48,339 nt of DNA from Bacteroidota bacterium. GTDB lineage: Bacteria; Bacteroidota; Rhodothermia; Balneolales; Balneolaceae. The stretch covers positions 1,351-49,689 of the forward strand of contig PZPG01000011.1 in assembly GCA_003045995.1 (NCBI GenBank). Reading direction: 5' to 3'. Both the position numbers and the translations under genes were made by a program. Within the stretch, counting starts at the first letter, position 1, and every line of letters starts with the position of its first letter. Under the pieces are notes generated by a model. The model was not told the DNA's origin. It saw nothing but the letters and a program-made list of their open reading frames with translations, and searched no databases. Shown here in pieces: positions 6,395-47,023 of this stretch.

Positions 6395-6775
6395 TCTGCC
6401 AAAACCTCAACGCATATCCCTCACACCACATCCCCCGCATCACACTAGCCGAATACCCTTGGAGTTCACAATCCCCGAATGCCAGGGTGCGCATCACTCA
6501 AGGTAAGTGGCTCTCGCATCAACCCGAAGCCCTACCCATAACTGGTAATTCTTACACCTTGCCGTTCTTACACCTGGCAATTCCTGCATCTTGTAATTCA
6601 CACACATGGTAATTCACACACATGGCAGTTTCCACACATAAAAATTCTTACACCTGGCAATTCATGCTGCTTGCAATTCACAAACATGGAGATTCTTACA
6701 CCTGGCAGTTTCCGCACATAAAAATTCCCACACCCCGTAATGCCCACACCCCGTAATGCCTACACCTGAGAATTT
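6395..6775. other. Convergent spacer dominated by a 16-bp repeat array
   Basis: The spacer between two convergent genes holds no recognisable gene. It contains one CATCAACCCGAA motif at 6517 and then a long 16-bp degenerate tandem array (6542-6781) ending in the era stop region. No hairpin-plus-T-run terminator was found for either gene. Confidence 0.7.
6517..6526 (+). repeat. Dispersed motif CATCAACCCG(AA), copy 2
   Basis: It reads TCTCGCATCAACCCGAAGCC and lies in the convergent spacer, 16 bp before the 16-bp repeat array. Confidence 0.85.
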
Positions 6776-32791: not shown

Positions 32792-32971
32792 ATATTGTTC
32801 TATTTTGGACAATCTTATCCAATTTACAAAATCAGCTCTTTATCTCCAAGCCAAAAAATGCGAATTCCCCTACACGTTCTGTAATGAAGACGCAGTCTTG
32901 ACAACTAATTCGGAGAAATGTTTGTTTACATGAGTATAAACATCAACCCATTAGACTTTACAACTGTTTTG

Positions 32972-35713
32972 ATGAGAATCCGCCAAATTTCCAGATCTAT
33001 TATTTTTGCATGGAGTGTCAGCTTGATCCTCTCCGTTCTGCCCCTGACTTCCGCAAGCGCACAGATGTCTCTCATCAACCCGACAACACCCACTCGCCAG
33101 GACTCCACAAAGCCCATCAATCCGGACGCCCAAAACGCACCCACACCCACGCAGGACAATCCCATCCCACCTACACAAACCAAATCCCTCCAAATCGAAG
33201 GCACCATCCTCGACGCGACCACCGGAGAAACCCTGCCGGCCGCATCCATCGCCATCAAAAACACCTACCGCGGCACCATCAGCAATAGCGAAGGACGCTT
33301 CACCATCCAGCCAGACTCCCTGCCCGCAACCCTTATCGTGCGCTTTATCGGATACCGCATGCAGGAGCTCACCCTCACAACCCCGCCGACCCAACCACTG
33401 CAGATCCGTCTAGAGCCCGAAATCCTGCAGATGGAAGAGGTTGTTGTCACCGGCGAAGACCCGGGTTTGTCCATCATGGAGCAGGTGATTGCGCGAAAAC
33501 AACTTTGGCAAGCCCGTCTTTTCACATACGAAGCCGATGCTTACACCCGCCAGCGCATCGAAAACGACACCACTATTGTTTCGATTAGTGAGAGTGCATC
33601 GGTGGTGTATTGGGATCGAACCAATGGTACACGTGAGCGCCAGCTGTACAAAAACCAAACGTCGAACATCAGCGAGGAACTCAACTTCGCCGGCGTTAGC
33701 TTTTTCCCCAATTTCTACGCCGATGACATCGAAATTTCCGGATTTTCCCTTGTGGGCGTCACCCATCCGGACGCTCTCGATTTCTACCGATTCTCCCTGC
33801 TCGACGTCGCCACGCAAGATGGCAAGCTGCTCTATACCATCCAGGTTCAGCCGCGGAGAACACTGCAACCGCTCTTCGAAGGTACGCTGAAAGTACTCGA
33901 CGAAGAGTTTGCCCTGCTCGAGGTAGATCTCAAACCCAACGATGTGGTCCGGTTCCCGCCGCCAGTGCAGGAGTTCGACCTCGCCTACCGTCAGCAATTC
34001 AGTAATTACGGCCGCGATTTCTGGCTCCCGGTCGACATGAATATCGACGGATCCATCAAAATCGGCATCATTGGCCTGGATTTTCCGCTCATTCGCTTTC
34101 GGCAGGTCTCCCAAATCACCGACTATCGTGTAAATGAACCCTTACCGGCCGGTATTTTCGAACAGGAAAGCCCGTTCATCACCTCCTACCCACGTCTATC
34201 CGAACGACCGGAAGAGATGCGATTACCTCTGAGCGAAGAGGAACAACAGGCGTATGCCACCATCGACAGTACACAAACCCTCGACAAAGCCTTCCAACCC
34301 ACCGGTTTCCTTGCACGTTTTACGGAAACCAGTGCCTCCGGCGAAACACAACAAGACACAAGCCGTACGCGGGGGTTCCAGGTGTCGGGAATCTTACGGT
34401 ATCAGCGGGTTGATGGGGCCACACTTGGGGCGAAAGTAGAACTGGACCGCAATCGATCTCCGCTGAAGCTCAGCCTCTCCCCGGTCTGGCACTTCAACCG
34501 TGGCGAAGCTGGAATCCGGGCTGGTGCACGGCTAGCACTGATCGACACGCAACGAGAACGGCAGCGTCTGCGGAGTCGGAGCAGTCGGAGCGGCCGGAGC
34601 GGCCGGAGCGGGGATGATGAAAGGGACAGTGATGGCACAAGGCGCAGTGATGGCACAAGGCGCAGTGATGGCACAAGAAGCGGTGATGGCACAAGAAGCG
34701 GTGATGGCGAAAGAGAGTATCCATTCCACCTTTATCTGTATGCAGACTACACAAACGACTCCGAAAATCGATGGGAAACTGCCACGTACCCCAATCTCAT
34801 TACCAGCGCTGTCACCGCAGCCGGCGGCCAGGACTACGGCGATTACTATCAAAAGGAAGCTTGGGCTGCAGAGCTGGAGGCACTCTTGCCCATACCGGGT
34901 CGCATCCGTCTCGCTTCCGGAATTCAATGGGAAAAACACACCTCTTTCGACTCGGAGTTGTTGCAAGACTGGAGTCTGTTCGGCTCACACGACCCCCGTC
35001 GTCCCAATCCGCGCATCGATGACGGCCGGCTCACCAGCCTCACCCTGCGCCTTGGCAACACACCAGAGGGACGTGCCGGAGCCCGGCCATCCGGTTTTGG
35101 CAGTCAGCGCGCATTTGAGGTCCGCCTGGAACATAGCCTGTCCTCCACGCTCGCGCCGGAACCCCATCAACCCGAACCCTTTTCCCCTCCTTTCCAACGT
35201 CCTGAAACGCTCACTTTCACCAAGCTGGACGGAGAGATCCGATGGAGTATGCCGACGTTCTATCAGCGGCGATTTTTCCCCAATGCACTGCATCTCACCG
35301 CCCGTGCCGGAATCACATTCGGCGACTTGCCACTTCAGCGCTTTGATGCAATCGATGGATCCCTCTTCCAGTATTCTCCCTTTGGTGTCCTCAAAACGCG
35401 TCGCCACCTGCCCTACGAGGGCGACCGCTACTGGCTAATCGCCGCAGAGCACGACTTGCAAAGTATTCTGTTCGAACGTCTGAAGATCCGTCCGCTGGTC
35501 GATCAGGGCACCGGAATCATTCTCTTTGCCACCGCAGGCCAGTCGATATCGAAGCGGCGTTTTCTCGACTACCAACCTATCACCTCAGATGGTGTTCACC
35601 TGGAAGCCGGGTTCAGCATCAATCGAATCGCTGGAATCTTTCGTGCAGATGTGGCGTTTCGCATGGACCAGCCCGGATTTTTCATCGGCGTCTCCGTGCC
35701 ACGATACTTTTGA
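32972..35713 (+). CDS. DUF5686/carboxypeptidase-regulatory-like outer-membrane protein
   Basis: This 913-residue protein is a predicted outer-membrane beta-barrel with a periplasmic front end. The ATG at 32972 gives a clean signal peptide (MRIRQISRSIIFAWSVSLIL) ending ASA; an ATG further upstream would add 18 residues. A Thr/Pro-rich linker is followed by a CarboxypepD_reg-like Ig fold (IEGTILDATTGETLPAASIA) ending in MEEVVVTG. The DUF5686 region and a C-terminal barrel follow, ending in an aromatic strand (GVSVPRYF). An 18-bp repeat (34631-34702) inserts a charged SDGTRR loop. There is no sign of a TonB plug. Function of the family is poorly known. Confidence 0.88.
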   Translation: MRIRQISRSIIFAWSVSLILSVLPLTSASAQMSLINPTTPTRQDSTKPINPDAQNAPTPTQDNPIPPTQTKSLQIEGTILDATTGETLPAASIAIKNTYRGTISNSEGRFTIQPDSLPATLIVRFIGYRMQELTLTTPPTQPLQIRLEPEILQMEEVVVTGEDPGLSIMEQVIARKQLWQARLFTYEADAYTRQRIENDTTIVSISESASVVYWDRTNGTRERQLYKNQTSNISEELNFAGVSFFPNFYADDIEISGFSLVGVTHPDALDFYRFSLLDVATQDGKLLYTIQVQPRRTLQPLFEGTLKVLDEEFALLEVDLKPNDVVRFPPPVQEFDLAYRQQFSNYGRDFWLPVDMNIDGSIKIGIIGLDFPLIRFRQVSQITDYRVNEPLPAGIFEQESPFITSYPRLSERPEEMRLPLSEEEQQAYATIDSTQTLDKAFQPTGFLARFTETSASGETQQDTSRTRGFQVSGILRYQRVDGATLGAKVELDRNRSPLKLSLSPVWHFNRGEAGIRAGARLALIDTQRERQRLRSRSSRSGRSGRSGDDERDSDGTRRSDGTRRSDGTRSGDGTRSGDGEREYPFHLYLYADYTNDSENRWETATYPNLITSAVTAAGGQDYGDYYQKEAWAAELEALLPIPGRIRLASGIQWEKHTSFDSELLQDWSLFGSHDPRRPNPRIDDGRLTSLTLRLGNTPEGRAGARPSGFGSQRAFEVRLEHSLSSTLAPEPHQPEPFSPPFQRPETLTFTKLDGEIRWSMPTFYQRRFFPNALHLTARAGITFGDLPLQRFDAIDGSLFQYSPFGVLKTRRHLPYEGDRYWLIAAEHDLQSILFERLKIRPLVDQGTGIILFATAGQSISKRRFLDYQPITSDGVHLEAGFSINRIAGIFRADVAFRMDQPGFFIGVSVPRYF
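33073..33082 (+). repeat. Dispersed motif CATCAACCCG, copy 9 (coding)
   Basis: It is read C ATC AAC CCG (Ile-Asn-Pro) just after the signal peptide of the DUF5686 protein, in its Thr/Pro-rich linker. Confidence 0.7.
34406..34415 (-). repeat. Dispersed motif CATCAACCCG core only, copy 10 (coding)
   Basis: In the DUF5686 gene it is read CGG GTT GAT G (Arg-Val-Asp). The flank is CTG rather than AA, so this may be a chance match within barrel-coding sequence. Confidence 0.4.
34631..34702. repeat. 18-bp tandem repeat in the DUF5686 gene
   Basis: Four in-frame 18-bp units (GATGGCACAAGGCGCAGT twice, GATGGCACAAGAAGCGGT twice) are preceded by shorter 9-bp GGCCGGAGC units. They encode a Ser/Asp/Gly/Arg loop between barrel strands. 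Confidence 0.92.
35165..35174 (+). repeat. Dispersed motif CATCAACCCG(AA), copy 12 (coding)
   Basis: In the DUF5686 gene it is read CAT CAA CCC GAA (His-Gln-Pro-Glu), within a Pro-rich barrel loop. Confidence 0.8.
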
Positions 35714-35856: not shown

Positions 35857-37623
35857 ATGAAATCGTTCTTTAAAAATGTTTTCTCAGTCTTTGTTGCACT
35901 AATCCTTTTTTCCATCCTTTCCTTCTTTTTCATGGTCACATTCCTGGCCATCTTGTCCCCGTCCGACACCGTAACCGTGAAGGAAAATTCCGTTCTCCAT
36001 CTCGATCTTAACGGCAAAATCCTCACCGAGCGTAGTAGCCCCGATGAGTTTGCGATCCCACTTCCCATCCCTTTGCTGGGTAATGTGGGAGACGCTCCGA
36101 GTGTGGGAATTGATGAACTAAAAGAAGCCATTCGGGCAGCTGCCAAAAGCGAGAAAATCCGTGGAATCTTTCTTGAAGCCGGATCGATGGCAGGCGGTGG
36201 GCCGCTGATGCAGGATCTGCATAAAGAGCTTCTGGACTTCAAAGAGAGCGACAAATTCATCCTCAGTTATAGCGAAAACTACAGCGAACTTGGCTACATG
36301 GTTTCATCGGCTGCCGACTCTCTCTATCTGCACCCGTACGGCCTGATCGATCTGTCTGGTCTTGCTTCCCAGGGCATCTATCTGCGGGGCATGTTCGACA
36401 AACTGGAGATCGAGCCGGAAGTATTCAAAGTGGGCGAATTCAAGAGCGCTGTGGAAACGTTTATGAATTATGAGCGGAGTGATGAGGATCGGCTTCAGAC
36501 GCTCGAATTCCTGCGAGACCTGGATAACATCAATCTGGAAACGATTGCGGAAGCTCGGGGAATGGAATTTGACGATCTGAAAGAGATTAGCAACGAACTA
36601 CTCATTCGTCGCGCGGAGGACGCTGTGGAGCGTGGGGTGGCCGATGCAATTCACTACCGCAATGAGGTGATCCGGAAACTGGAAGCGATCACGGGTGCTG
36701 AGGAAGACGAACTCGAAACCATCTCTGCTTCCGATCTGAACAAGAGCCCTGAAAAATTGTCTCGCCCAACCTCACGGGATCGGGTAGCCGTTCTGTATGC
36801 AACCGGAGATATCGGTAGTGAAAGCAGCAATGGAATTCAAGATGCAGCGATGGTAGAAGAGATCGAAAAACTACGGGAAAACGACCGGGTGAAGGCAGTA
36901 GTTCTTCGGGTTGATTCTCCCGGTGGTGGCGTATTCGCATCGGAAGAGATCCGGCACAATCTGGAACTTTTGCAGGAGGAAAAACCACTGATTGTATCGA
37001 TGAGCAACGTGGCGGCGAGTGGTGGTTACTGGATCTCCATGCCGGCCGACACCATTGTGGCGCATGAAAACACAATTACCGGATCGATTGGCATCTTTGG
37101 AATTTTCTTTAATGTGCAGGGATTCATGGAGAACAAAACCGGCATCCGGGCTGATATTGTGAAAACCGGACGGTACTCCGATCTGCCAAACCCGGCGCGA
37201 AGCATGACACGCGGAGAGCGGGCGATCTTCCAGGAGCTGATTGAAGAAGGGTACGACCAGTTTATTGATGTAGTAGCCGACGGTCGCCAGATGGAAGAGT
37301 CCCGGGTTCGGGAGATTGCTGAAGGCCGGGTCTATAGTGGTCGGCGTGCTCTCGAGCTAGGTTTGGTAGACCTGCTAGGCGGACTGGATCTGGCCGTTGA
37401 AATTGCGGCGCAGAAAGCAGGGCTCGAAGAGTACCGTGTGAGTGAGTATCCAGCACAGCAGTCATTCGTAGAGCAGTTGTTCTCCGACATGGGGGCATCG
37501 GCTCGCACCCGCACCCTTAAAAATGAGCTAGGGCCGCTTTATCCGCTGTACGAACAGGCGCAGTCTGTGCTGAAGAATCAAGGAGTGCAGGCAAGGATGC
37601 CCTACGACATCATTGTTGATTAA
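35857..37623 (+). CDS. sppA: Signal peptide peptidase SppA (67K type)
   Basis: SppA is a membrane-anchored serine peptidase that degrades remnant signal peptides. The 588-residue protein has an N-terminal membrane anchor (about 8-33), and two tandem S49 domains as in the long type. The catalytic Lys196 lies in GEFKSAVETF of the first half and Ser388 in NVAASGGYWIS of the second, matching the Ser/Lys dyad of E. coli SppA. The leader contains two AATCAA-type repeats of about 20 bp running into the ATG. Confidence 0.95.
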   Translation: MKSFFKNVFSVFVALILFSILSFFFMVTFLAILSPSDTVTVKENSVLHLDLNGKILTERSSPDEFAIPLPIPLLGNVGDAPSVGIDELKEAIRAAAKSEKIRGIFLEAGSMAGGGPLMQDLHKELLDFKESDKFILSYSENYSELGYMVSSAADSLYLHPYGLIDLSGLASQGIYLRGMFDKLEIEPEVFKVGEFKSAVETFMNYERSDEDRLQTLEFLRDLDNINLETIAEARGMEFDDLKEISNELLIRRAEDAVERGVADAIHYRNEVIRKLEAITGAEEDELETISASDLNKSPEKLSRPTSRDRVAVLYATGDIGSESSNGIQDAAMVEEIEKLRENDRVKAVVLRVDSPGGGVFASEEIRHNLELLQEEKPLIVSMSNVAASGGYWISMPADTIVAHENTITGSIGIFGIFFNVQGFMENKTGIRADIVKTGRYSDLPNPARSMTRGERAIFQELIEEGYDQFIDVVADGRQMEESRVREIAEGRVYSGRRALELGLVDLLGGLDLAVEIAAQKAGLEEYRVSEYPAQQSFVEQLFSDMGASARTRTLKNELGPLYPLYEQAQSVLKNQGVQARMPYDIIVD

Positions 37624-37671
37624 TTGCGAGACCGGGAAGGGTCACCATCCGTGCTTACGTGAAAATTGATC

Positions 37672-37823
37672 CCATTCGAGGTGAGTAATACCACTCGAGG
37701 TGCGTAAGACCAATCCCGGCGACTAAGGCCACTGCAAGTAAGCAATATAACTCCCGGTGAGAAATTCCACTCACAGTGAGCGATTCCACTCACAGTGAGC
37801 GATTCCACTCCCGGCATACCGAT
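37672..37823. repeat. 19-bp tandem array, eight units
   Basis: Eight gap-free 19-bp units include CCATTCGAGGTGAGTAATA, CCACTCGAGGTGCGTAAGA, TAACTCCCGGTGAGAAATT and two identical copies of CCACTCACAGTGAGCGATT. Since 19 is not a multiple of three, no frame could read through it as a simple peptide repeat. Confidence 0.92.
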
Positions 37824-37868
37824 AGATTCCTGAACACCAAGGATTTTTTTACGGGCTGGGTGGATCTG

Positions 37869-37878
37869 CATCAACCCG
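37869..37878 (+). repeat. Dispersed motif CATCAACCCG(AA), copy 11
   Basis: It reads GGATCTGCATCAACCCGAAA in non-coding spacer, followed by AAAACCACC. It lies 45 bp after the 19-bp array and is the clearest intergenic example. Confidence 0.88.
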
Positions 37879-37984
37879 AAAAAAACCACCTTTTCTATAA
37901 CACCCCTTTTCCTATTACACCACCCTGGTAGAATAACTTCAAGATTCATTTAAAGATCAACTTCAAAAATAACTTCAAGTTCGC

Positions 37985-40900
37985 ATGAAAGCCAGAACCC
38001 GCTACTTGTTGCTGACAACGAAATCTGTATTTCTTGTACCTGTACTCATCCTGCTGTTCATCTTGGCGGCGCCTATGGCTTCGTCTTTATTCTTAGCTCC
38101 ATCATTCGAGGGCGCGTCTGCAGTTACGGCGCAAAATATGGCGAATGAGCGCCGTCTGGCAGATAATCCTTTTCAGGAATCTCGGAGTCATTCCCTGCAA
38201 CATGATCAGAGCCATTCCCAGCATCATCCCCTCGCCCCAAAAGTTCCGCTCGGATTTTCGATGTTCAACGGGCGCAATCACCCGGAACTCGACTGGCAAA
38301 CAGCCGAAACCGAGCATTTTCTGATCCAATACCCGAAACATCTGGAAGGGATCGAGTTGCAAGCGGCATCCATTGCGGAAGCCACCTATGAAGCCCTCTC
38401 CGCAAATCTTGGCGTTACGTTCGACTACAAAATTCGAATCTATCTTAGCGACGAAGATGAAATCGTGAACGGTTACGCAATGCCTTTTTGGAAGTCCTAC
38501 ACCAACATCTGGGTAGCCCTAAACGATGTGGCAGAGGGCTGGTCGGGGCCGGAAAAATGGCTCCGAACCGTTCTCGCACACGAACTCGCGCACATCTTCC
38601 ATTTCGAAGCGGTCAAGTCCAACGTAGGGTTGCTCGGAACGCTTCTCACAGCCCCTGCCCTGCCGGCTCCCTGGACGGAAGGGATCGCTCAGTATCAAAC
38701 CGAACCCTGGCATGCATTGCGCGGCGATGCCATTCTCCGAACTTCCATCTACGACGGCGCGCCCGACTTCCGTGATGGCCGATCGATGCAGAACCGTGGT
38801 CTTATGTACGCCAGTGGCAATGCCCAGCTACGCTATTTTGCTTCCGTGTATGGCGATTCGCTCCTGCCGAAAATCCTCAGCCATCGCAAAGAGCTGTTCG
38901 GCGGTCGCATGAAAGTGCACAATTTTGAAGAGGCTTTTGAGGAGGTTACCGGTACATCTTTTGCCGATTTTGAGGAGGAATGGCGCCGGCATATGAGCAT
39001 CTACTACTACACCCTGGCCGGCCAGATGGAGCGTAGTGACTCCCTGGCTTCTGATCCGCTAGAACTCCCGGGTCTGTTCAAAGGCGAGGCAGCCTTCAGC
39101 CCCGACGGATCGCAGCTTGCTGCCATCTATCTGGTCTCGGGCGCCAAACCGTATGAGCGACTTTCGGTTTTCCGGAACGATTCCACCATGGCGGAGACGG
39201 TGCTGGACGAAGGAGCATTCACCGGGCAGTTAAAATGGCATCCCGACGGGAGCGAACTCGTGTACGGCCGAAGCACGCGCGGAGAGAACGGGTCCATTGT
39301 TAACGATCTTTACAGGGTTCGGGTTGATGGGAAACCGGAACGGCTCACGCACTCCCGAAGAGCGAAAAATGCCGATTATACGCCGGACGGTCAGTCTATA
39401 GTGTACGTGGTGAACGAAAACGGTACAGGGAACCTGTTTTCTATGAATTTGTCCGATCGGTTGAAATCGGGTAGGTCGGATTCGGACAGGTCGGATTCGG
39501 GCAGGTCGGAAACCCGTATCACATCGTACGAGGGTGACAGTCAGATCGGTGCAATCGATGTCCATCCGACACGGCCTGTAGTTGCCTATGCTTTGTTCGC
39601 AAAGGATGGAGCCCGCCAAATCTCTGTGCGAAACTGGGAAACAGGGGAAACTATCATGCTCACAGATGGTATGCTAGATGATCGCAATCCGGTGTGGAGC
39701 CCGGATGGCCAGCAGTTGTTGTACACCAGTTTGCGGGATGATGTACCGAATCTGTTTGTAATCCATCCATTCGAGGGAACGGGGAGTGATGCGATTTCGG
39801 ATGAAGAGCGTGTCACGGCCTTATTTACCGGGGCCTCTGCCCTGCAATGGGTTTGGGCCGATAGCTCGTCCCATCAACCCGAACAGAAAAACGGCCAAGG
39901 TGAAGAACTGGGTGAAGTACAGAATGTCGAAACGGATGCCGGAAAGGGGGTGTCCGGAACCGATGGCCCGGCTGATGGATGGATTTTAGTGCGAAGAAGC
40001 GACAGCAAAATGGACAACGAGTTGCAATTAATCGATGCATCGCGGCGTGCATCGGTGTCCAGCTATCCCGAGCGTGCCTTATTGCCCGATGAGTATACGC
40101 GATGGACTACCCACCGACCGCCGAATGTGATTGCACCCGTAATTGCTCCGGATCCTTCGCTAATTCAGGCGCGCAGACCGTACGATTCGTTCCAGCAGAT
40201 CTCGCACATTGCAACGGTGCCATTCCCGGTGTATGATGAGGAAATTGGTGCCGGCGTTGGCGTTTTTACGGCATTTTCCGAGCCACTGTCCAAGCACATG
40301 ATTACCGGGCTAGGATATGTTTCGTTCCAGGATCCGGGCGAGAACAGCCTGCTTCTGCTCAATTACACAAACAACCAGCTTCGGCCTTCGCTGAATTTCA
40401 GTTTGTATCACAACAGTTTTACCTCGCGGCTGTATGAAGATGAGTTTTTGGTGACTACAAATTCGGGTCTGTCGGTGCTGGGGCTGCTGCCTCGCGACTG
40501 GATCGATTCGCCGTTTGGGGCCGGGTCGTTGTTTTCACGTCTTCGGTTCGATTACACCGATAGTGATCGGTTTTGGGAGCGTGACGATCTTCCGCCATTT
40601 TCACCGCTAGGTGATCCGCAGAGTGGCTGGCAGACCGACCTGACTCTGGGTTTTCAGCTGAAAAAACAAAAACCATATGCGTTTAATGTGATTCATCCGC
40701 TGGATGGGTGGGGTGTGGAGCCAAAACTGACACTGGCTACAAAGGCACTGGGCGGGGAAACAGAGTATCTGCGTGCGGATCTAAAGGCGTATACTATTTT
40801 ACCGTTTTTGGGGAACAGCCGTTTCTATCTGTATGGACGAGCGCTTGCGCAATCGGGCACAGCGTTCAATCAGGATTACATCGGGTTTAGCCGGTATGAT

Positions 40901-41317
40901 GAGATTACCTTTGGGGAGCTCGTTCCGGGGATCGATCTTTTTTACCGGGATACGGAGCGGGTCCGCGGGTTTCGGGAGGTGGCAACGGGAAACCGAATGT
41001 TGTTCTCAACGGTGGAGTACCGGTTGCCATTCTTGCCTAGTCTGGAGACACAGATTCTCGGGTTGGTTGGCTTCGGACGCACAACGCTGAGCGCGTTTCT
41101 GGATGTGGGTGCAGTCTGGAGCGACGATCTGCTCCCCGACGATGCCGCAGACGGAACGGTTACACGGGCCGGTGCAGGGTTTGAGCTAAAGAATGTCCTC
41201 AACCTCTTTGGAGTACCGATTCTGCACAGCATCGGATATGCACAACCGTTCGAAGATTTCGGCACCGAACGAAATCAAGAGATCTATTACCGGGTGCGGG
41301 CTACAGTCGCGTTTTAG
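37985..41317 (+). CDS. Metallopeptidase-like protein with beta-propeller and outer-membrane barrel
   Basis: This 1110-residue protein starts with a signal peptide (about 1-50). A gluzincin-like segment has HELAH at 199-203 (H-E-x-x-H) and a possible third ligand Glu232 in WTEGIAQY. A WD40-like (PD40/TolB-type) propeller covers about 350-640 with blades such as NPVWSPDGQQLLYTS. The last about 350 residues resemble a BamA/Omp85-type surface barrel, ending in YRVRATVAF with terminal Phe. It would therefore sit in the outer membrane with a periplasmic peptidase-like front. The 15-bp repeat 39467-39511 adds a SDSDRSDSGR loop. Related multidomain proteins exist in Bacteroidota, but no substrate is known. 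Confidence 0.82.
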   Translation: MKARTRYLLLTTKSVFLVPVLILLFILAAPMASSLFLAPSFEGASAVTAQNMANERRLADNPFQESRSHSLQHDQSHSQHHPLAPKVPLGFSMFNGRNHPELDWQTAETEHFLIQYPKHLEGIELQAASIAEATYEALSANLGVTFDYKIRIYLSDEDEIVNGYAMPFWKSYTNIWVALNDVAEGWSGPEKWLRTVLAHELAHIFHFEAVKSNVGLLGTLLTAPALPAPWTEGIAQYQTEPWHALRGDAILRTSIYDGAPDFRDGRSMQNRGLMYASGNAQLRYFASVYGDSLLPKILSHRKELFGGRMKVHNFEEAFEEVTGTSFADFEEEWRRHMSIYYYTLAGQMERSDSLASDPLELPGLFKGEAAFSPDGSQLAAIYLVSGAKPYERLSVFRNDSTMAETVLDEGAFTGQLKWHPDGSELVYGRSTRGENGSIVNDLYRVRVDGKPERLTHSRRAKNADYTPDGQSIVYVVNENGTGNLFSMNLSDRLKSGRSDSDRSDSGRSETRITSYEGDSQIGAIDVHPTRPVVAYALFAKDGARQISVRNWETGETIMLTDGMLDDRNPVWSPDGQQLLYTSLRDDVPNLFVIHPFEGTGSDAISDEERVTALFTGASALQWVWADSSSHQPEQKNGQGEELGEVQNVETDAGKGVSGTDGPADGWILVRRSDSKMDNELQLIDASRRASVSSYPERALLPDEYTRWTTHRPPNVIAPVIAPDPSLIQARRPYDSFQQISHIATVPFPVYDEEIGAGVGVFTAFSEPLSKHMITGLGYVSFQDPGENSLLLLNYTNNQLRPSLNFSLYHNSFTSRLYEDEFLVTTNSGLSVLGLLPRDWIDSPFGAGSLFSRLRFDYTDSDRFWERDDLPPFSPLGDPQSGWQTDLTLGFQLKKQKPYAFNVIHPLDGWGVEPKLTLATKALGGETEYLRADLKAYTILPFLGNSRFYLYGRALAQSGTAFNQDYIGFSRYDEITFGELVPGIDLFYRDTERVRGFREVATGNRMLFSTVEYRLPFLPSLETQILGLVGFGRTTLSAFLDVGAVWSDDLLPDDAADGTVTRAGAGFELKNVLNLFGVPILHSIGYAQPFEDFGTERNQEIYYRVRATVAF
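39320..39329 (-). repeat. Dispersed motif CATCAACCCG(AA), copy 13 (coding)
   Basis: It is read GTT CGG GTT GAT GGG (Val-Arg-Val-Asp-Gly) in a propeller blade of the large barrel protein. Confidence 0.7.
39467..39511. repeat. 15-bp tandem repeat in the propeller of the large barrel protein
   Basis: Three in-frame units (TCGGGTAGGTCGGAT, TCGGACAGGTCGGAT, TCGGGCAGGTCGGAA) encode a SGRSD-type loop. Confidence 0.9.
39872..39881 (+). repeat. Dispersed motif CATCAACCCG(AA), copy 14 (coding)
   Basis: It is read CAT CAA CCC GAA CAG (His-Gln-Pro-Glu-Gln) at the start of a Gln/Glu/Gly-rich insert in the large barrel protein, followed by AAAAACGG. Confidence 0.85.
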
Positions 41318-41389: not shown

Positions 41390-42661
41390 TCAAAGCACGT
41401 TAAACCGCTCGAAGGCCGCTTTTTCGAGCTCTTCGCGGTGGTCGGGATGTGCAATATCGATGAGCGCCCGGGTGCGTTGCCGCAAACTCTTGCCAAACAG
41501 ATTTGCCACTCCATGTTCCGTCACCACGTAATGCACGTGCGCACGGGTTGTCACCACGCCGGCTCCCTGCTTCAGATACGGCACAATCTTCGACACCCCT
41601 TTGGCGGTTTGTGACGGCAGCGCAATAATCGGCTTTCCTCCCTCCGACAACGACGCACCCCGAATAAAATCCATCTGCCCGCCAACCCCCGAAAACTGAT
41701 ACGTTCCAATCGAATCCGCACAAACCTGCCCTGTAAAATCCACCTCAATGGCACTGTTAATCGCGGTTACCTTCGGATTCCGCCGAATCACCGCGGTATC
41801 GTTCACATAACTCGTATCCAGCATCTGAATCAGCGGATTATCATCCATATAATCATACAATGCCCGCGTCCCCATCGCAAAGGTGGCCACCACTTTGTCC
41901 GGATGGATCCGTTTCTTCGAATTGTTCACCACGCCCGACTTAATCAACGGAATCACCCCATCCGAAAACATCTCTGTGTGGATTCCCAAATCCTGATGAT
42001 CACCCAGCGCCGCCAAAACTGCATCCGGAATCGACCCAATCCCCATCTGAAGCGTCGCACCATCCTCAATCAGCTCCGCACAATTCTCCCCGATCTGCTT
42101 CTCCACATCACTCAATGGCTGTTGTGCATGTTCATAAATCGGGTCGTTCACCTCTACTGCCACATTAATATTCCGAACATGAATCAACCCATCCCCATGC
42201 GTACGCGGCATATTCGGGTTGATTTGAGCAATCACCGTTGTAGCATTCTGAATCGCAGCACGCGTAGCATCCACAGAAACACCTAGTGAACAATACCCAT
42301 GTTTGTCCGGCGGGCTCACCTGAATCATCGCTACGTCCAGCTCAATGATACGCCGGCGAAACAGCAACGGTACCTCACTCAAAAAAATCGGTACATAGTC
42401 CGCATCCCCCTCCTTCATCGCCTGCCGCACATTCTTCGCTGTAAAAAACGCGAACGTATTAAAATTTTCGCGATACTCCCGCTGCGTATACGGTGCCACC
42501 CCTTCGGTATGCAAATGATAGATATTCACATTCTTCAGCTCGTGATGCCGGGCGGTCATCGCTTTTACCAATTGCTGAGGTGCAGCAGCAGCCGTATGAA
42601 TGTAGATGTGATCGTTAGAACGGATGAGCTGAACTGCGTTTTCTGCGGAAAGTATATTCAT
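41390..42661 (-). CDS. Acetyl-CoA hydrolase/4-hydroxybutyrate CoA-transferase family protein
   Basis: The 423-residue enzyme belongs to the cat1/4-hydroxybutyrate CoA-transferase family, which moves CoA between acyl groups or hydrolyses acyl-CoA. The predicted catalytic glutamate is in LGIHTEMFSDGV. Glycine-rich CoA-binding segments are TLQMGIGSIPDAV and FSGVGGQMDFIRGA, and the end VTEHGVANLFGKSLRQRTRA is typical. Length matches the family. It lies downstream of ftsH on the same strand with a 111-bp gap. Substrate cannot be set from sequence; acetate/propionate/butyrate or succinate CoA exchange is likely. Confidence 0.92.
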   Translation of the reverse strand: MNILSAENAVQLIRSNDHIYIHTAAAAPQQLVKAMTARHHELKNVNIYHLHTEGVAPYTQREYRENFNTFAFFTAKNVRQAMKEGDADYVPIFLSEVPLLFRRRIIELDVAMIQVSPPDKHGYCSLGVSVDATRAAIQNATTVIAQINPNMPRTHGDGLIHVRNINVAVEVNDPIYEHAQQPLSDVEKQIGENCAELIEDGATLQMGIGSIPDAVLAALGDHQDLGIHTEMFSDGVIPLIKSGVVNNSKKRIHPDKVVATFAMGTRALYDYMDDNPLIQMLDTSYVNDTAVIRRNPKVTAINSAIEVDFTGQVCADSIGTYQFSGVGGQMDFIRGASLSEGGKPIIALPSQTAKGVSKIVPYLKQGAGVVTTRAHVHYVVTEHGVANLFGKSLRQRTRALIDIAHPDHREELEKAAFERFNVL

Positions 42662-42780: not shown

Positions 42781-44803
42781 ACTCCCCTTCCTGCTTATTC
42801 CCCTTCTGCGCTTTCTCAACTTGCGCCTTCCCATTCTGCTCCTTCCCCTCCCGCACTGCCTGCTCCACCTCCTCCCCACTCACCTGATCTTTCTCGAGCA
42901 GCAACGCTGCAATCCGGTCCAATGCGTTTCGGTTTGATGCAAGTACATCCACGGCCCTGTCGAACGCCGCGTGTGATATCTTCTCCACCTCCTTATCCAT
43001 CTCACGAGCGGTTGCATCGCTATACTCCTGCTGCCGTGTAATCTCCCGCCCCAAAAACACCTCTTCCTGGCTGTGCTGAAACGCCATATGATGAAACGCA
43101 TCACTCATCCCCCAATCCATCACCATCTTGCGAGCCAGCTTCGCTACTCGCTGCAGGTCATTCTCCGCCCCGCTGGTCGACGTCCCAAAAACCTCCTGCT
43201 CTGCAGCCCGCCCTCCCATAATCACCGCCAGCTGATCCATCAGCATCTCCTTATTGTACAAATACTTCTCCTTCACCGGCAGTTGCTGCGTCACGCCCAT
43301 CGCCATACCCCTTGGGATAATCGTCACCTTGTGCACCGGATCCGCATGCTGCAACACCGCGGCAACCAGCGCATGTCCCGCCTCATGATACGCCAGCAAC
43401 TCCCGCTCCTGATCGTCAATCCGCATCCCTTCGCGCTCCAGACCCATCACCACCTTGTCCCGCGCCATTTCGATATCCTCCGGTAGGATGATTTTCCGTT
43501 CCGCTCGCCCGGCATACAGCGCTGCCTCGTTCAATAAATTCGCGAGATCCGCCCCACTAAATCCTGGCGTACTCCGCGCCAGAGCATCCAGATCCACGGA
43601 CGCATCCAGCGGCTTCTTCTTCGCATGAATTTTCAGAATCTCCAGCCGCGCCTCCTGGGACGGCAGATCCACCGTTACCTGGCGGTCGAACCGCCCCGGA
43701 CGCAACAGCGCCTTATCCAGAATATCCGGTCGGTTGGTCGCTGCCATAACCACAATATTTTCCGTCGGTTCAAACCCATCCAACTCCGACAACAGCTGAT
43801 TCAACGTCTGCTCCCGCTCATCGTGCCCGCCACCTACTCCGGCACCCCTCGTACGGCCAATCGAATCGATCTCATCCACAAAAATGATGCTGGGCGCCAT
43901 CTCCTTCGCCTTCTTAAACATCTCCCGAACCCGCTTCGCCCCCACCCCGACAAACATCTCCATGAAATCCGATCCGGTAATGGTGAAAAACGGCACCCCA
44001 GCCTCTCCGGCAACCGCCCGTGCCAGCAAGGTTTTCCCCGTTCCCGGAGGTCCCAGTAACAAGATCCCTTTAGGCAAGGTCGCCCCCAAATCCTTAAAAT
44101 GATCCGGATTTTTCAGAAACTCGATTACTTCACGCAACTCCGCCTTCGCTCCGTCCAGCCCCGCCACCATCTCGAACGTTGTTTTATTATCCTCCGGCCG
44201 CTGCAAGTGCGCCTGACTCTGCCCAATATTCATCATTCCGCGCCCACCGGCCCCCTGCATCCGCTGCAAAAAAACATACCCAAACAGAATCAGCAGAATC
44301 AAAGGACCCGCAAACACCAGCAAATACCACCAAAAACCGTCTCCCTCCGGCTCGGCAGACACCACAACTCCCTGCTCCTCCATCAGCGCCAGCAAACCCT
44401 CATCCCCAAACGACGGAATCACCGTCCGAAACCGATCATACGCCGTCGAATCCCCCTGCTGCGCCAAAAACACCTGCGACTGCGCCAGCTCCCCCCTCAC
44501 CTCATCCCCCTTCACATGCACACGCTCCACATTCCCCGCCCGTAATTGCGACCGAAACTCACTATACTCGATCTCTGGAACAGACCCAAACATTCCTCCG
44601 CCCGTCCGATCCCCGGTCACATAAAAAAACAGAAGCATCAGCAATAGAAACACATAAATCCATCCCACCCGTCCAAACCGGTTTCTCCCACCCAGCCCTT
44701 GTCCCTGACCCAGCCCTTGTCCCTGACCTTTTCTCTGATCCTGGCCATTTCTCTGCTCCTGGCCCTGTCCCGCACTCTTATTTTTTGATGAATCGTCTGG
44801 CAT
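42773..44803 (-). CDS. ftsH: ATP-dependent zinc metalloprotease FtsH
   Basis: FtsH is a membrane AAA+ protease that degrades misfolded membrane proteins and regulators. The 676-residue protein has two N-terminal membrane helices (near 47-64 and 160-178) flanking a periplasmic domain. The AAA+ module has Walker [17 protein letters not shown], Walker [12 protein letters not shown] and the second region of homology [20 protein letters not shown]. The protease has HEAGH ([11 protein letters not shown]). The N-terminal Gln/Gly-rich tail is encoded by 18-bp repeats (44685-44774), and the C-terminal Lys/Gln/Glu-rich tail ends in the dispersed motif. Confidence 0.97.
44685..44774. repeat. 18-bp tandem repeat encoding the FtsH N-terminal tail
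   Basis: Five 18-bp units such as CCCTGACCCAGCCCTTGT (plus-strand view) encode GQGQGL/NGQDQR repeats just before the first membrane helix of FtsH. Confidence 0.85.
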
Positions 44804-45988: not shown

Positions 45989-47023
45989 ATGAAAACAAAC
46001 GTCACAGAAGTCCGGCAATATCGCGTAGCATGTTTAACACTATTGGCACTCATCATTGGACTACTATCAACAACCGGATTACAGGCACAATCGCCACGCG
46101 AAATCCCGGCAGGTCAGGCATCCTCAAATGAAACCTCATCCTACGACGCATTGCAGCGAAGGCAAGTACCAAACGTGGTTGCAGACCGGATGATACACCA
46201 ACTGCTTACTGAATATGCAGAAGAGCTTGCCATCACGGAAACCCAAAAAACTGCACTCCTTCAATGGCAATTTCAGAAACGGGGTGATGAGAGAGCCCGC
46301 AGGTTGGAACGAATGGAGGAAGGTAGGCGAAATGATCGGGATAGACGGAATGGAGTTGATTTCAATCGCCAACGACCGCAACAACCAGGTGGCGCATGGC
46401 AGCGAAGATTAGAGCGACAGGATGCAGGACAACGAGGTGGAGGGCAATATAACAGGCGTGGTGATGCGATGCCCGGACGTGGGATGGCTCCTCAACGTAA
46501 TGATGCGATGCCTGGACGAGGGGTAGCTCCACAACGTAGTGATGCGATGCCTGGACGAGGGATGGCTCCTCAACGTAGTGAGCAGGCCAGACGTAGCGAG
46601 ATCCCTGGACGTCCAGAAATGAGAGATCGTGCGCTTCAGCGCCTTTCATCCTCCATCGAAATGAAACAAAAAACTTCCGAAATTCTCTCGGAGGATCAGT
46701 TTACAGGATGGAAAAATCTTCAGATCAAAGAGGCAGAACAGGAATTCGAGGTGCGAATGTTGCGGTTGCAGATCCGCCTGGAGAATGCCGGAGTGACTGG
46801 TGAGAAACTGACCCGTGTTCTTACATTGCTTCGTGAACAGGCCGAACTAACACATGAACACCGTATTGCAGAGATCGGTCGCATGAAGATGCCCGATGAG
46901 CAAGAGTTGCAACGTTTACAAGAGCAACGAAAAACAATGCGTGAATCTCTTCGACAGACCAACGAGCAGATTAAGAATCTGTTAACCGCCAAAGAGTATG
47001 AGCAATTTCGCGGCAGGATGTAG
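45989..47023 (+). CDS. Spy/CpxP-like periplasmic protein with 13-residue repeats
   Basis: The 344-residue protein has a signal peptide (about 10-33, ending LQAQ), so it is exported. Two regions resemble LTxxQ-type Spy/CpxP helices (LAITETQKTALL and EILSEDQFTGWKNL), with a long charged coiled coil at the C-terminus. Between them lies an Arg/Gly/Met-rich stretch with three exact-length copies of DAMPGRGMAPQR(N/S). The start at 45989 is preferred over 45908 because it sits directly before the signal peptide. It is followed by an ECF sigma and an anti-sigma-like gene, so it may act as the periplasmic sensor or effector of that module. Confidence 0.7.
   Translation: MKTNVTEVRQYRVACLTLLALIIGLLSTTGLQAQSPREIPAGQASSNETSSYDALQRRQVPNVVADRMIHQLLTEYAEELAITETQKTALLQWQFQKRGDERARRLERMEEGRRNDRDRRNGVDFNRQRPQQPGGAWQRRLERQDAGQRGGGQYNRRGDAMPGRGMAPQRNDAMPGRGVAPQRSDAMPGRGMAPQRSEQARRSEIPGRPEMRDRALQRLSSSIEMKQKTSEILSEDQFTGWKNLQIKEAEQEFEVRMLRLQIRLENAGVTGEKLTRVLTLLREQAELTHEHRIAEIGRMKMPDEQELQRLQEQRKTMRESLRQTNEQIKNLLTAKEYEQFRGRM
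46463..46579. repeat. 39-bp tandem repeat in the Spy-like gene
   Basis: Three in-frame copies of a 39-bp unit (46463-46501, 46502-46540, 46541-46579) encode DAMPGRG(M/V)APQR(N/S). Copies differ at only a few bases. Confidence 0.93.

What the first reader, a model, noticed from the sequence alone, without database searches (positions are those of the whole stretch)
37985..41317. One chain with HExxH site, propeller and outer-membrane barrel
Seen: HELAH with a later TEG, PD40-type blades, and a BamA-like C-terminal barrel ending in Phe. A protease-like head attached to an Omp85-type barrel suggests a self-contained outer-membrane processing or quality-control machine. It lies next to SppA and a second barrel protein, so the region may be an envelope-maintenance locus.
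Basis: partly seen in the sequence, partly recalled or inferred. Interest (0 to 1): 0.5.

Follow-up and report, generated by a model that had tools for sequence, protein, structure and literature searches.

The report
Membrane-anchored zinc peptidase with propeller
This gene appears to encode one long protein that joins a zinc-dependent protein-cutting head, a propeller-shaped middle and a barrel that would anchor it in the bacterium's outer membrane; the barrel-plus-propeller type is already described but little studied, and the cutting head makes it directly testable.

Summary
ORF 37985-41317 (+) is one 1110-aa chain: probable signal peptide, HExxH head, TolB-like PD40 propeller, C-terminal Omp85-type barrel ending in Phe. 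In 22 aligned sequences (the window protein and 21 relatives at 33-59% identity) H199, E200, H203, E232 and Y275 are invariant, and the head is the most conserved module. Its profile matches M1-type gluzincin domains over 187 columns; the M48 match covers only the HExxH region. Against this, two divergent relatives (about 24-30% identity) lack the site, so the scaffold can outlive catalysis. The barrel keeps the Omp85 VRG motif; no POTRA was found. 'WD40-Omp85' was described in 2014 (PMC4104836), with no peptidase in the text I read; its 'metalloprotease' Omp85 subfamily is defined by PF00149, which is Metallophos. Best reading: an outer-membrane-anchored periplasmic zinc peptidase; a quality-control role is possible, unproven. 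SppA is adjacent in 2 of 16 relative loci, so the 'envelope-maintenance locus' is not supported. Both structure predictions failed (pLDDT 35, 28), leaving zinc geometry and barrel closure untested. New variant of a known kind, moderate interest.

The parts
37985..41317 (+). Whole gene, 1110 aa: gluzincin-like head + TolB-like propeller + Omp85-type barrel
37985..38134 (+). Residues 1-50: probable signal peptide, hydrophobic core about 14-36, ends ...AVTAQ; inferred from sequence, no signal-peptide program run
   Evidence: sequence; alignment (several orthologues also have a short leader ending in ...AQ)
38246..39052 (+). Residues 88-356: gluzincin-like (Peptidase MA type) metallopeptidase head, the most conserved module (40/269 positions invariant in 22 sequences)
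38579..38593 (+). HELAH, residues 199-203 (two inferred zinc ligands and the inferred catalytic Glu200)
38675..38683 (+). TEG, residues 231-233; Glu232 is the inferred third zinc ligand
38807..38809 (+). Tyr275, aligned with the Y of the M1 Y-x-K motif; inferred transition-state residue (role of the M1 Tyr recalled, not from a call)
39053..40054 (+). Residues 357-690: TolB-like PD40 beta-propeller (boundaries approximate)
39473..39510 (+). 15-base tandem repeat giving a Ser/Asp/Arg-rich insertion within the propeller region, absent from the 14 other rows of alignment A1
40343..41284 (+). Residues 787-1100: Pfam Omp85 barrel match (profile positions 19-317 of 325)
40961..40972 (+). VRGF, residues 993-996: Omp85 loop-6 signature (motif recalled); VRG 22/22
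41312..41314 (+). C-terminal Phe1110, barrel end signal (F aligned in 20 of 22; the other two end in Trp)
35857..37623 (+). Neighbour: SppA (peptidase S49), 588 aa; a homologue is near the gene in 2 of 16 relative loci
32918..35713 (+). Neighbour: CarbopepD_reg_2 + DUF5686 protein, 931 aa; no homologue near the gene in 16 relative loci
41390..42661 (-). Neighbour on the other strand: acetyl-CoA hydrolase/transferase

Best explanation
An outer-membrane-anchored, periplasm-facing zinc metallopeptidase. After export, the C-terminal POTRA-less Omp85-type barrel is inserted in the outer membrane. The TolB-like propeller sits just below it as a substrate- or partner-binding or gating module. The N-terminal gluzincin head (H199, H203 and E232 as ligands, E200 as base, Y275 as transition-state residue) cleaves polypeptides at the inner face of the outer membrane. 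Supported by sequence: the domain order, homology of each module and invariance of the catalytic residues among closer relatives. Inferred: zinc binding, catalysis, periplasmic side. Speculative: whether the substrates are misassembled outer-membrane proteins, precursors or peptides.
For: Five catalytic residues identical in 22 of 22 aligned sequences (window plus 21 at 33-59% identity); head the most conserved module (40/269 invariant versus 12/334 and 19/420). hhalign of the head with the heads of 18 PF13485 hits: 99%, E 4.8e-18; with 19 M1 domains: 96%, E 3.9e-9 over 187 columns, aligning HELAH, the EG Glu, the Tyr and the final F..eW; five unrelated pairings at most 0.6%. Propeller: profile A1 finds TolB chains at E 1.3e-24. 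Barrel: PF01103 above cut-off; 85%, E 6e-6 with 15 BamA/Omp85 barrels (83%); 97%, E 1.8e-11 with the group B barrel, itself 97.6%, E 3e-12 with that Omp85 set; VRG 22/22. Precedent for the topology: the patatin head of the Omp85 protein PlpD resides exclusively in the periplasm (PMC11116518, abstract).
Against: Two divergent relatives, G006 (L023 = L044, 979 aa) and G002 (L024, 702 aa), have no HExxH and no EGxA in the head; L023 keeps head, propeller and barrel similarity and the C-terminal Phe, so in some lineages the scaffold persists without the site. No structure: both predictions failed. The window protein alone does not hit PF13485 or PF01433 at E 1 or better, while it does hit M48, as do 11 of 15 A1 members. 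The barrel match to the BamA set covers 148 of 421 columns, and that set was chosen partly by an RG[FY] motif. PF01103 reaches E 0.01 in only 6 of 15 A1 members and in 1 of 5 group B proteins by hmmscan, although the genome search scored several of those frames above its cut-off. The strand scan separates barrel from head only weakly (27% of windows versus 20%). No localisation or activity data; gene context points to no pathway.
Confidence: 0.7

Rival explanations
1. BepA-like quality-control protease: the head degrades stalled or misfolded outer-membrane proteins, and the propeller plays a BamB-like scaffold role. (A special case of the best explanation.)
For: Location, catalytic head and BAM-related barrel fit. 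The 2014 survey calls WD40-Omp85 reminiscent of a BamA-BamB fusion (PMC4104836, section 10). BepA, a periplasmic Zn-metallopeptidase, acts in LptD biogenesis and degradation (PMC8423444, start of abstract in the listing).
Against: The head is not M48 by the features tested: no E-x-x-A-D-type motif in the window protein and an M48 match over 57 columns only. The window genome already has three strong and one weaker Trypsin_2 loci and two strong M48 loci; the one I read looks like an integral-membrane STE24 type (my reading). No BAM gene was identified among the neighbours looked up.
Confidence: 0.25
2. Peptide-scavenging or peptide-processing enzyme: the propeller restricts access to oligopeptides, as in prolyl-oligopeptidase-type enzymes, and the head trims peptides entering through the outer membrane. 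(Also a special case of the best explanation.)
For: Propeller plus peptidase is a known gating arrangement (recalled). The expansion into four paralogous head groups suits diversified substrates better than one housekeeping role.
Against: No nutrient-uptake gene recurs among the neighbours looked up. In prolyl oligopeptidase the catalytic domain is a different fold (recalled).
Confidence: 0.25
3. Autotransporter-like display: the barrel translocates head and propeller to the cell surface, giving a surface protease or sheddase.
For: The same idea was proposed for PlpD and for Omp85 with enzyme heads (PMC4104836, section 10).
Against: PlpD's enzyme head was found exclusively in the periplasm (PMC11116518, abstract). 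A propeller plus head of about 600 residues is bulky cargo (inference).
Confidence: 0.12
4. Assembly factor or scaffold with a non-catalytic head: a BamA/TamA-like insertase in which the peptidase fold only binds clients.
For: Omp85 is mainly an assembly and translocation family (PMC4104836, section 10). Two divergent relatives keep the layout but lack the catalytic motifs.
Against: In the window protein and 21 closer relatives all five catalytic residues are kept and the head is the most conserved module. No POTRA hit at E 1 or better.
Confidence: 0.1

Closest known systems
WD40-Omp85 subfamily of the Omp85/TpsB superfamily (Heinz and Lithgow 2014, PMC4104836)
   Same: TolB-like beta-propeller N-terminal to an Omp85 barrel, no POTRA domain
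   Different: A gluzincin-like head precedes the propeller here; the sections I read mention no peptidase in this subfamily. Their supplementary tables were not read, so whether their members also carry the head is untested.
PlpD / patatin-Omp85
   Same: An enzyme domain N-terminal to an Omp85 barrel in one chain; the enzyme is periplasmic in PlpD (PMC11116518, abstract)
   Different: Patatin lipase instead of a zinc peptidase; a POTRA and no propeller. The window genome also has a patatin-POTRA-Omp85 protein, L073:2678-5074.
Peptidase MA superfamily, Pfam PF13485, and family M1
   Same: HExxH, downstream Glu in an EG motif, Tyr in a Y..G motif, closing F..eW
   Different: 28 residues between HExxH and Glu232 rather than the 18 used to select the M1 set; no direct PF13485 or PF01433 hit for the window protein at E 1 or better
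BepA / YcaL / LoiP (M48)
   Same: Zinc peptidases linked to outer-membrane protein biogenesis (PMC13067283, passage); weak Pfam M48 hit here (22.2 bits, cut-off 20.3; 11 of 15 members)
   Different: Only the HExxH region matches and the M48 downstream motif is absent; YcaL and LoiP are lipoproteins, not barrel proteins
'Metallo' Omp85 subfamily of Heinz and Lithgow
   Same: Name suggests a metalloprotease-Omp85 fusion
   Different: Defined there by PF00149, which the Pfam copy names Metallophos, a phosphoesterase family (recalled) and not an HExxH peptidase

Membership tests
Omp85 superfamily | Omp85 barrel domain (PF01103) above curated cut-off | tested here: met
   29.5 bits versus 24, residues 787-1100. 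Among A1 members 6 of 15 match at E 0.01 or better.
Omp85 superfamily | Loop-6 (V/I)RG(F/Y) motif and strand F-x-D-x-G motif (motifs recalled) | tested here: met
   VRG 22/22, next residue F/Y 21/22; F 21/22, D 20/22 (2 E), G 15/22 (7 A)
Omp85 superfamily | Closed 16-stranded barrel | tested here: inconclusive
   AlphaFold2 pLDDT 28.1; hydropathy scan gave 16 peaks but discriminates poorly
BamA/TamA | POTRA domains / BamA equivalog model | tested here: not met
   No POTRA at E 1 or better; OM_YaeT 20.7 bits versus cut-off 297.15
WD40-Omp85 | TolB-like propeller N-terminal to an Omp85 barrel, no POTRA | tested here: met
   PD40 E 4.9e-12, Omp85 E 7e-7, no POTRA at E 1 or better; TolB PDB chains E 1.3e-24 with profile A1
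WD40-Omp85 | Sequence clustering with the 2014 members | not tested
Gluzincin / Peptidase MA | HExxH plus downstream Glu ligand | tested here: met
   22/22; profile match to M1 and PF13485-positive heads. Absent in two divergent relatives.
Gluzincin / Peptidase MA | Direct PF13485 hit above cut-off | tested here: not met
   No hit at E 1 or better for the window protein; paralogue L068:4113-7538 hits at 36.7 bits versus 32.4
Gluzincin / Peptidase MA | Bound zinc, peptidase activity | not testable with these tools
   Head model pLDDT 34.6, unusable
M48 (BepA-like) | E-x-x-A-D-type motif after HExxH | tested here: not met
   Motif search of the window protein empty; profile match over 57 columns only
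M1 aminopeptidases | HExxH-x18-E and PF01433 hit | tested here: not met
   28 residues between HExxH and E232; no PF01433 hit at E 1 or better
TolB | NCBIfam propeller_TolB equivalog score | tested here: not met
   59.7 bits versus cut-off 343.15: TolB-like propeller, not TolB

The most novel reading that the evidence does not exclude
A self-contained outer-membrane proteolytic machine: the propeller feeds chains to the zinc head and the Omp85 barrel is an active pore, extruding products or drawing in substrates. If so, the WD40-Omp85 subfamily would be a diversified set of membrane-embedded peptidases, with natural dead versions as scaffolds, rather than BamA-BamB-like assembly factors.
Probability: 0.12. 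Interest if true: 0.75.

Novelty: new variant of a known kind. Interest (0 to 1): 0.42.

Why it matters
WD40-Omp85 proteins were listed in 2014, and a 2024 paper still counted them among Omp85 members that 'have not been well characterized' (PMC11116518 passage). A conserved gluzincin site in front of the propeller turns an open question (what do non-POTRA Omp85 proteins do?) into a test of one residue, Glu200, and the two relatives that lost the site offer a natural comparison. It also suggests that a real metalloprotease-Omp85 fusion may be this one, because the subfamily called metalloprotease in 2014 was defined by a phosphoesterase model.

Tried and rejected

Sequence search of the Protein Data Bank found no convincing relative of the head (one hit, E 0.74) and only TIM-barrel (HisF-type) hits for the barrel (5 hits, best E 0.0027, stretches of about 35 residues), rejected as spurious. 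The Pfam M48 label was considered and rejected for lack of the downstream motif and the short match, although the model does pass its cut-off and 11 of 15 A1 members hit it at E 0.01.

The conserved-neighbourhood idea was rejected. The minus-strand 109-aa ORF 37620-37949 has no Pfam hit at E 0.001, overlies 19-base repeats and has no room in L004 and L048, where the SppA-gene gap is 134 and 17 bases; treated as probably spurious. Promoter and terminator scans gave fewer sites than the shuffle mean and were not used. The hydropathy strand scan is too weak to count strands. Group C and D C-termini were tested as Omp85: C 1.8%, D 66.5% over 88 columns, so the architecture is not claimed for those two groups.

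Discrepancy: the genome search scored Omp85 above cut-off in several group B frames (for example 33.9 bits in G000 C63), but hmmscan of five whole group B proteins listed PF01103 in only one, L161, even at E 10. I take this to be HMMER's filters on long proteins, unproven.

Motif scans on group B: a strict pattern found the EG motif in 13 of 18 and the Y..G motif in 4 of 18 head rows. A looser one found EGxA and a Y..G in 10 of 10 group B, 10 of 10 group C and 8 of 8 group D full-length proteins. The loose Y..G also picks up other sites (in several group A rows it caught a different Y), so Y275 counts rest on the alignment.

Rows dropped before counts: groups were made only from closed ORFs of at least 800 aa selected to contain HExxH at residues 81-260, so that clustering could not show site-less homologues. 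Incomplete relatives such as L013, L017, L019, L021, L022 and L045 were left out. The divergent L023/L044 and the 702-aa L024 were left out of A1 and of the 22; when checked they proved to lack the site. The hhalign sets were chosen by motif: M1 by HExxH-x18-E (19 rows), M48 by HExxH...E-x-x-A-D (19 of 22 loci), BamA-type by RG[FY] (15 rows). The 22 are the 15 rows of A1 plus 7 of the 9 class-level loci L082-L090; L084 and L088 were not added.
Full report
What is there. The window belongs to a 2.37 Mb, 117-contig genome, 97% complete. The one named relative found for this protein is 'Bacteroidetes bacterium UBA2664' (L004, 57% identity). ORF 37985-41317 on + encodes 1110 residues. Pfam gives PD40 (E 4.9e-12), Omp85 (E 7e-7, residues 787-1100) and a borderline M48 hit (22.2 bits, cut-off 20.3) confined to residues 134-214. 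NCBIfam gives TolB-like and BamA-like scores far below their cut-offs. Sequence comparison with solved structures finds TolB for the propeller (E 1.3e-24 with profile A1) and nothing convincing for the head or barrel.

Relatives. In 38 related genomes every one has some match, but by my count of the listed rows a strong match (200 bits or more) occurs in 19 of 38, the window's own included. In a 118-genome sample of the phylum, 85 have a profile match at E 1e-10, many of them covering only propeller positions; matches of 700 bits or more are confined to the same class. Fifteen full-length rows were aligned (A1, 38-59% identity to the first) and seven more were added, giving 22. In these, H199, E200, H203, E232, G233, A235, Y237, Y275, G278, G290, D291 and W333 are identical in 22 of 22, and so is V993-R994-G995. 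Conservation is concentrated in the head: 40 of 269 positions invariant, against 12 of 334 in the propeller and 19 of 420 in linker plus barrel. In these sequences the head does not look like a decayed enzyme.

A result against. Two relatives left out of the 22 as too divergent (24-30% identity) were checked afterwards. L023 (= L044, genome G006, 979 aa) still aligns over head, propeller and barrel and ends in Phe, but has no HExxH and no EGxA in the head. L024 (G002, 702 aa) aligns over head and barrel and lacks both motifs too. In each of these genomes it was the best match, so some lineages keep the layout without the catalytic site. This makes a scaffold role possible in part of the family. 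I lowered the best explanation from 0.72 to 0.70 and raised the non-catalytic rival from 0.08 to 0.10 for this reason; the window protein itself keeps the full site.

What the head is. The single sequence does not hit PF13485 or PF01433 at E 1 or better, so I compared profiles. Head A against the heads of 18 PF13485 hits: probability 99%, E 4.8e-18. Against 19 M1 domains from related genomes: 96%, E 3.9e-9 over 187 columns, with HELAH on HExxH, the EG glutamate on the M1 EG glutamate, Tyr275 on the Y of the Y-x-K motif, and the closing F..eW aligned. Five unrelated pairings scored 0.6% or less. Against 19 M48 domains: 81%, but over 57 columns around HExxH only, and the M48 downstream motif is absent from the window protein. 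I therefore read the head as an M1/Peptidase-MA-type gluzincin rather than M48. It is not an M1 aminopeptidase by the features tested (28 residues between HExxH and Glu, no PF01433 hit). That H199, H203 and E232 bind zinc, that E200 is the base and that Y275 stabilises the transition state is inferred from these alignments and from recalled M1 chemistry.

What the barrel is. PF01103 passes its cut-off in the window protein but reaches E 0.01 in only 6 of 15 A1 members. The barrel profile matches 15 BamA/Omp85 barrels at 85% (E 6e-6, 148 of 421 columns; 83%). It also matches the group B C-terminus at 97% (E 1.8e-11, 305 columns), which in turn matches the BamA/Omp85 set at 97.6% (E 3e-12). The Omp85 model scores several group B frames above cut-off in the genome search but appears in only 1 of 5 group B proteins by hmmscan. 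The loop-6 VRG(F/Y) and strand F-x-D-x-G signatures (recalled motifs) are kept. No POTRA was found. A crude hydropathy scan is compatible with a strand-rich region but discriminates poorly, and the AlphaFold2 model of this part was unusable. A closed 16-strand barrel is likely but not shown.

Paralogues. Clustering 52 closed ORFs selected for an HExxH head gave four groups of 24, 10, 10 and 8 at both thresholds tried. The window's genome has at least one member of each: this gene (A); L049:4319-7477 (C); L068:4113-7538 (B); L050:5670-9617 (D). The head profiles are related: A with B, C and D at 99% or more, B with C 93.8%, B with D 98.7%; C with D was not run. EGxA follows HExxH in 10 of 10 B, 10 of 10 C and 8 of 8 D proteins, and the A-C and A-D alignments place Glu and Tyr opposite those of group A. 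Only groups A and B have clearly Omp85-like C-termini; C does not (1.8%) and D is doubtful (66.5% over 88 columns). The head-plus-propeller unit therefore seems to have been combined with different C-terminal modules.

Surroundings. SppA lies upstream, but an SppA homologue was found near the gene in only 2 of 16 relative loci and a homologue of the DUF5686 protein in 0 of 16 (ORFs of 150 aa or more, BLAST E 1e-8, loci of 6-18 kb, some ending at contig ends). Nine neighbours looked up elsewhere are of unrelated kinds. The genome has other envelope-type proteases: three strong and one weaker Trypsin_2 loci and two strong M48 loci, one of which reads as an integral-membrane STE24-type protein (type by my reading). 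The context therefore does not single out quality control.

How it most likely works. Signal peptide, export, barrel insertion; the propeller and zinc head hang in the periplasm, and the head cleaves polypeptides at the inner face of the outer membrane. The closest tested precedent is PlpD, whose enzyme head was found exclusively in the periplasm (PMC11116518, abstract, three passages). Quality control and peptide processing are two versions of this reading that I rate about equal; surface display and a scaffold role are less likely.

Known or new. Heinz and Lithgow 2014 (PMC4104836; outline, passages, sections 10 and 13 read, supplements not read) list WD40-Omp85 as one of ten subfamilies and liken it to a BamA-BamB fusion; a word-start search of the main text for 'peptidase' found 0. 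Their 'Metallo' subfamily is called metalloprotease but defined by PF00149, which is Metallophos. A 2024 paper repeats 'metalloprotease' and WD40-like as poorly characterised. A 2026 review (PMC13067283, passages), two 2025 Bacteroidota BAM papers (PMC12611786 and PMC12578637, passages) and a 2012 survey of toxin systems that shared several search terms (PMC3482391, passages) showed no such protein in the passages seen. Seven full-text searches listed no paper whose title or abstract start describes a HExxH-propeller-Omp85 protein: 7 of 7 shown; 7 of 7; 20 of 62; 15 of 15; 15 of 222; 5 of 5; 1 of 1. Subscription papers are not covered. I call it a new variant of a known kind.

Noticed in passing
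L023:163-3102 (= L044:7198-10137, G006) and L024:1465-3573 (G002): Two divergent relatives keep head and barrel similarity but have lost HExxH and EGxA: apparent natural pseudoenzymes of this layout. L024 is also shorter, 702 aa.
   Followed up: partly
window 34577-34708, 39473-39510, 44690-44764, 46457-46581 (and others among 59 repeat rows): Many short tandem repeats, several with periods of 15, 18 or 39 bases inside genes, giving in-frame low-complexity insertions; the one in this gene is absent from the 14 other aligned rows. May be a genome-wide habit of this lineage.
   Followed up: no
G000 C63, L068:4113-7538 and L049:4319-7477: Two of the head-plus-propeller paralogues of this genome lie within about 5 kb of each other on one contig, with a transporter-like ORF (my reading) and a PEP carboxylase between them.
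   Followed up: partly
PF13485 hits in 19 related genomes (L091-L108): Of the 18 best Peptidase_MA_2 hits, 17 lie in open frames of 1054-1163 aa (L106 lies in a 364-aa frame cut by the end of the held sequence), the size of the head-propeller-barrel proteins; none of 14 control genomes has a hit.
   Followed up: partly
L073:2678-5074: The same genome also has a patatin + POTRA + Omp85 protein (PlpD-like), so two kinds of enzyme-headed Omp85 coexist.
   Followed up: no
window 6565-6766: An 80-base unit repeated about twice (85% match) overlapping and next to 16-base repeats around 6.6 kb; not examined.
   Followed up: no
window 37620-37949: 109-aa minus-strand ORF between SppA and this gene, no Pfam hit, overlying 19-base repeats; probably not a gene.
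   Followed up: partly
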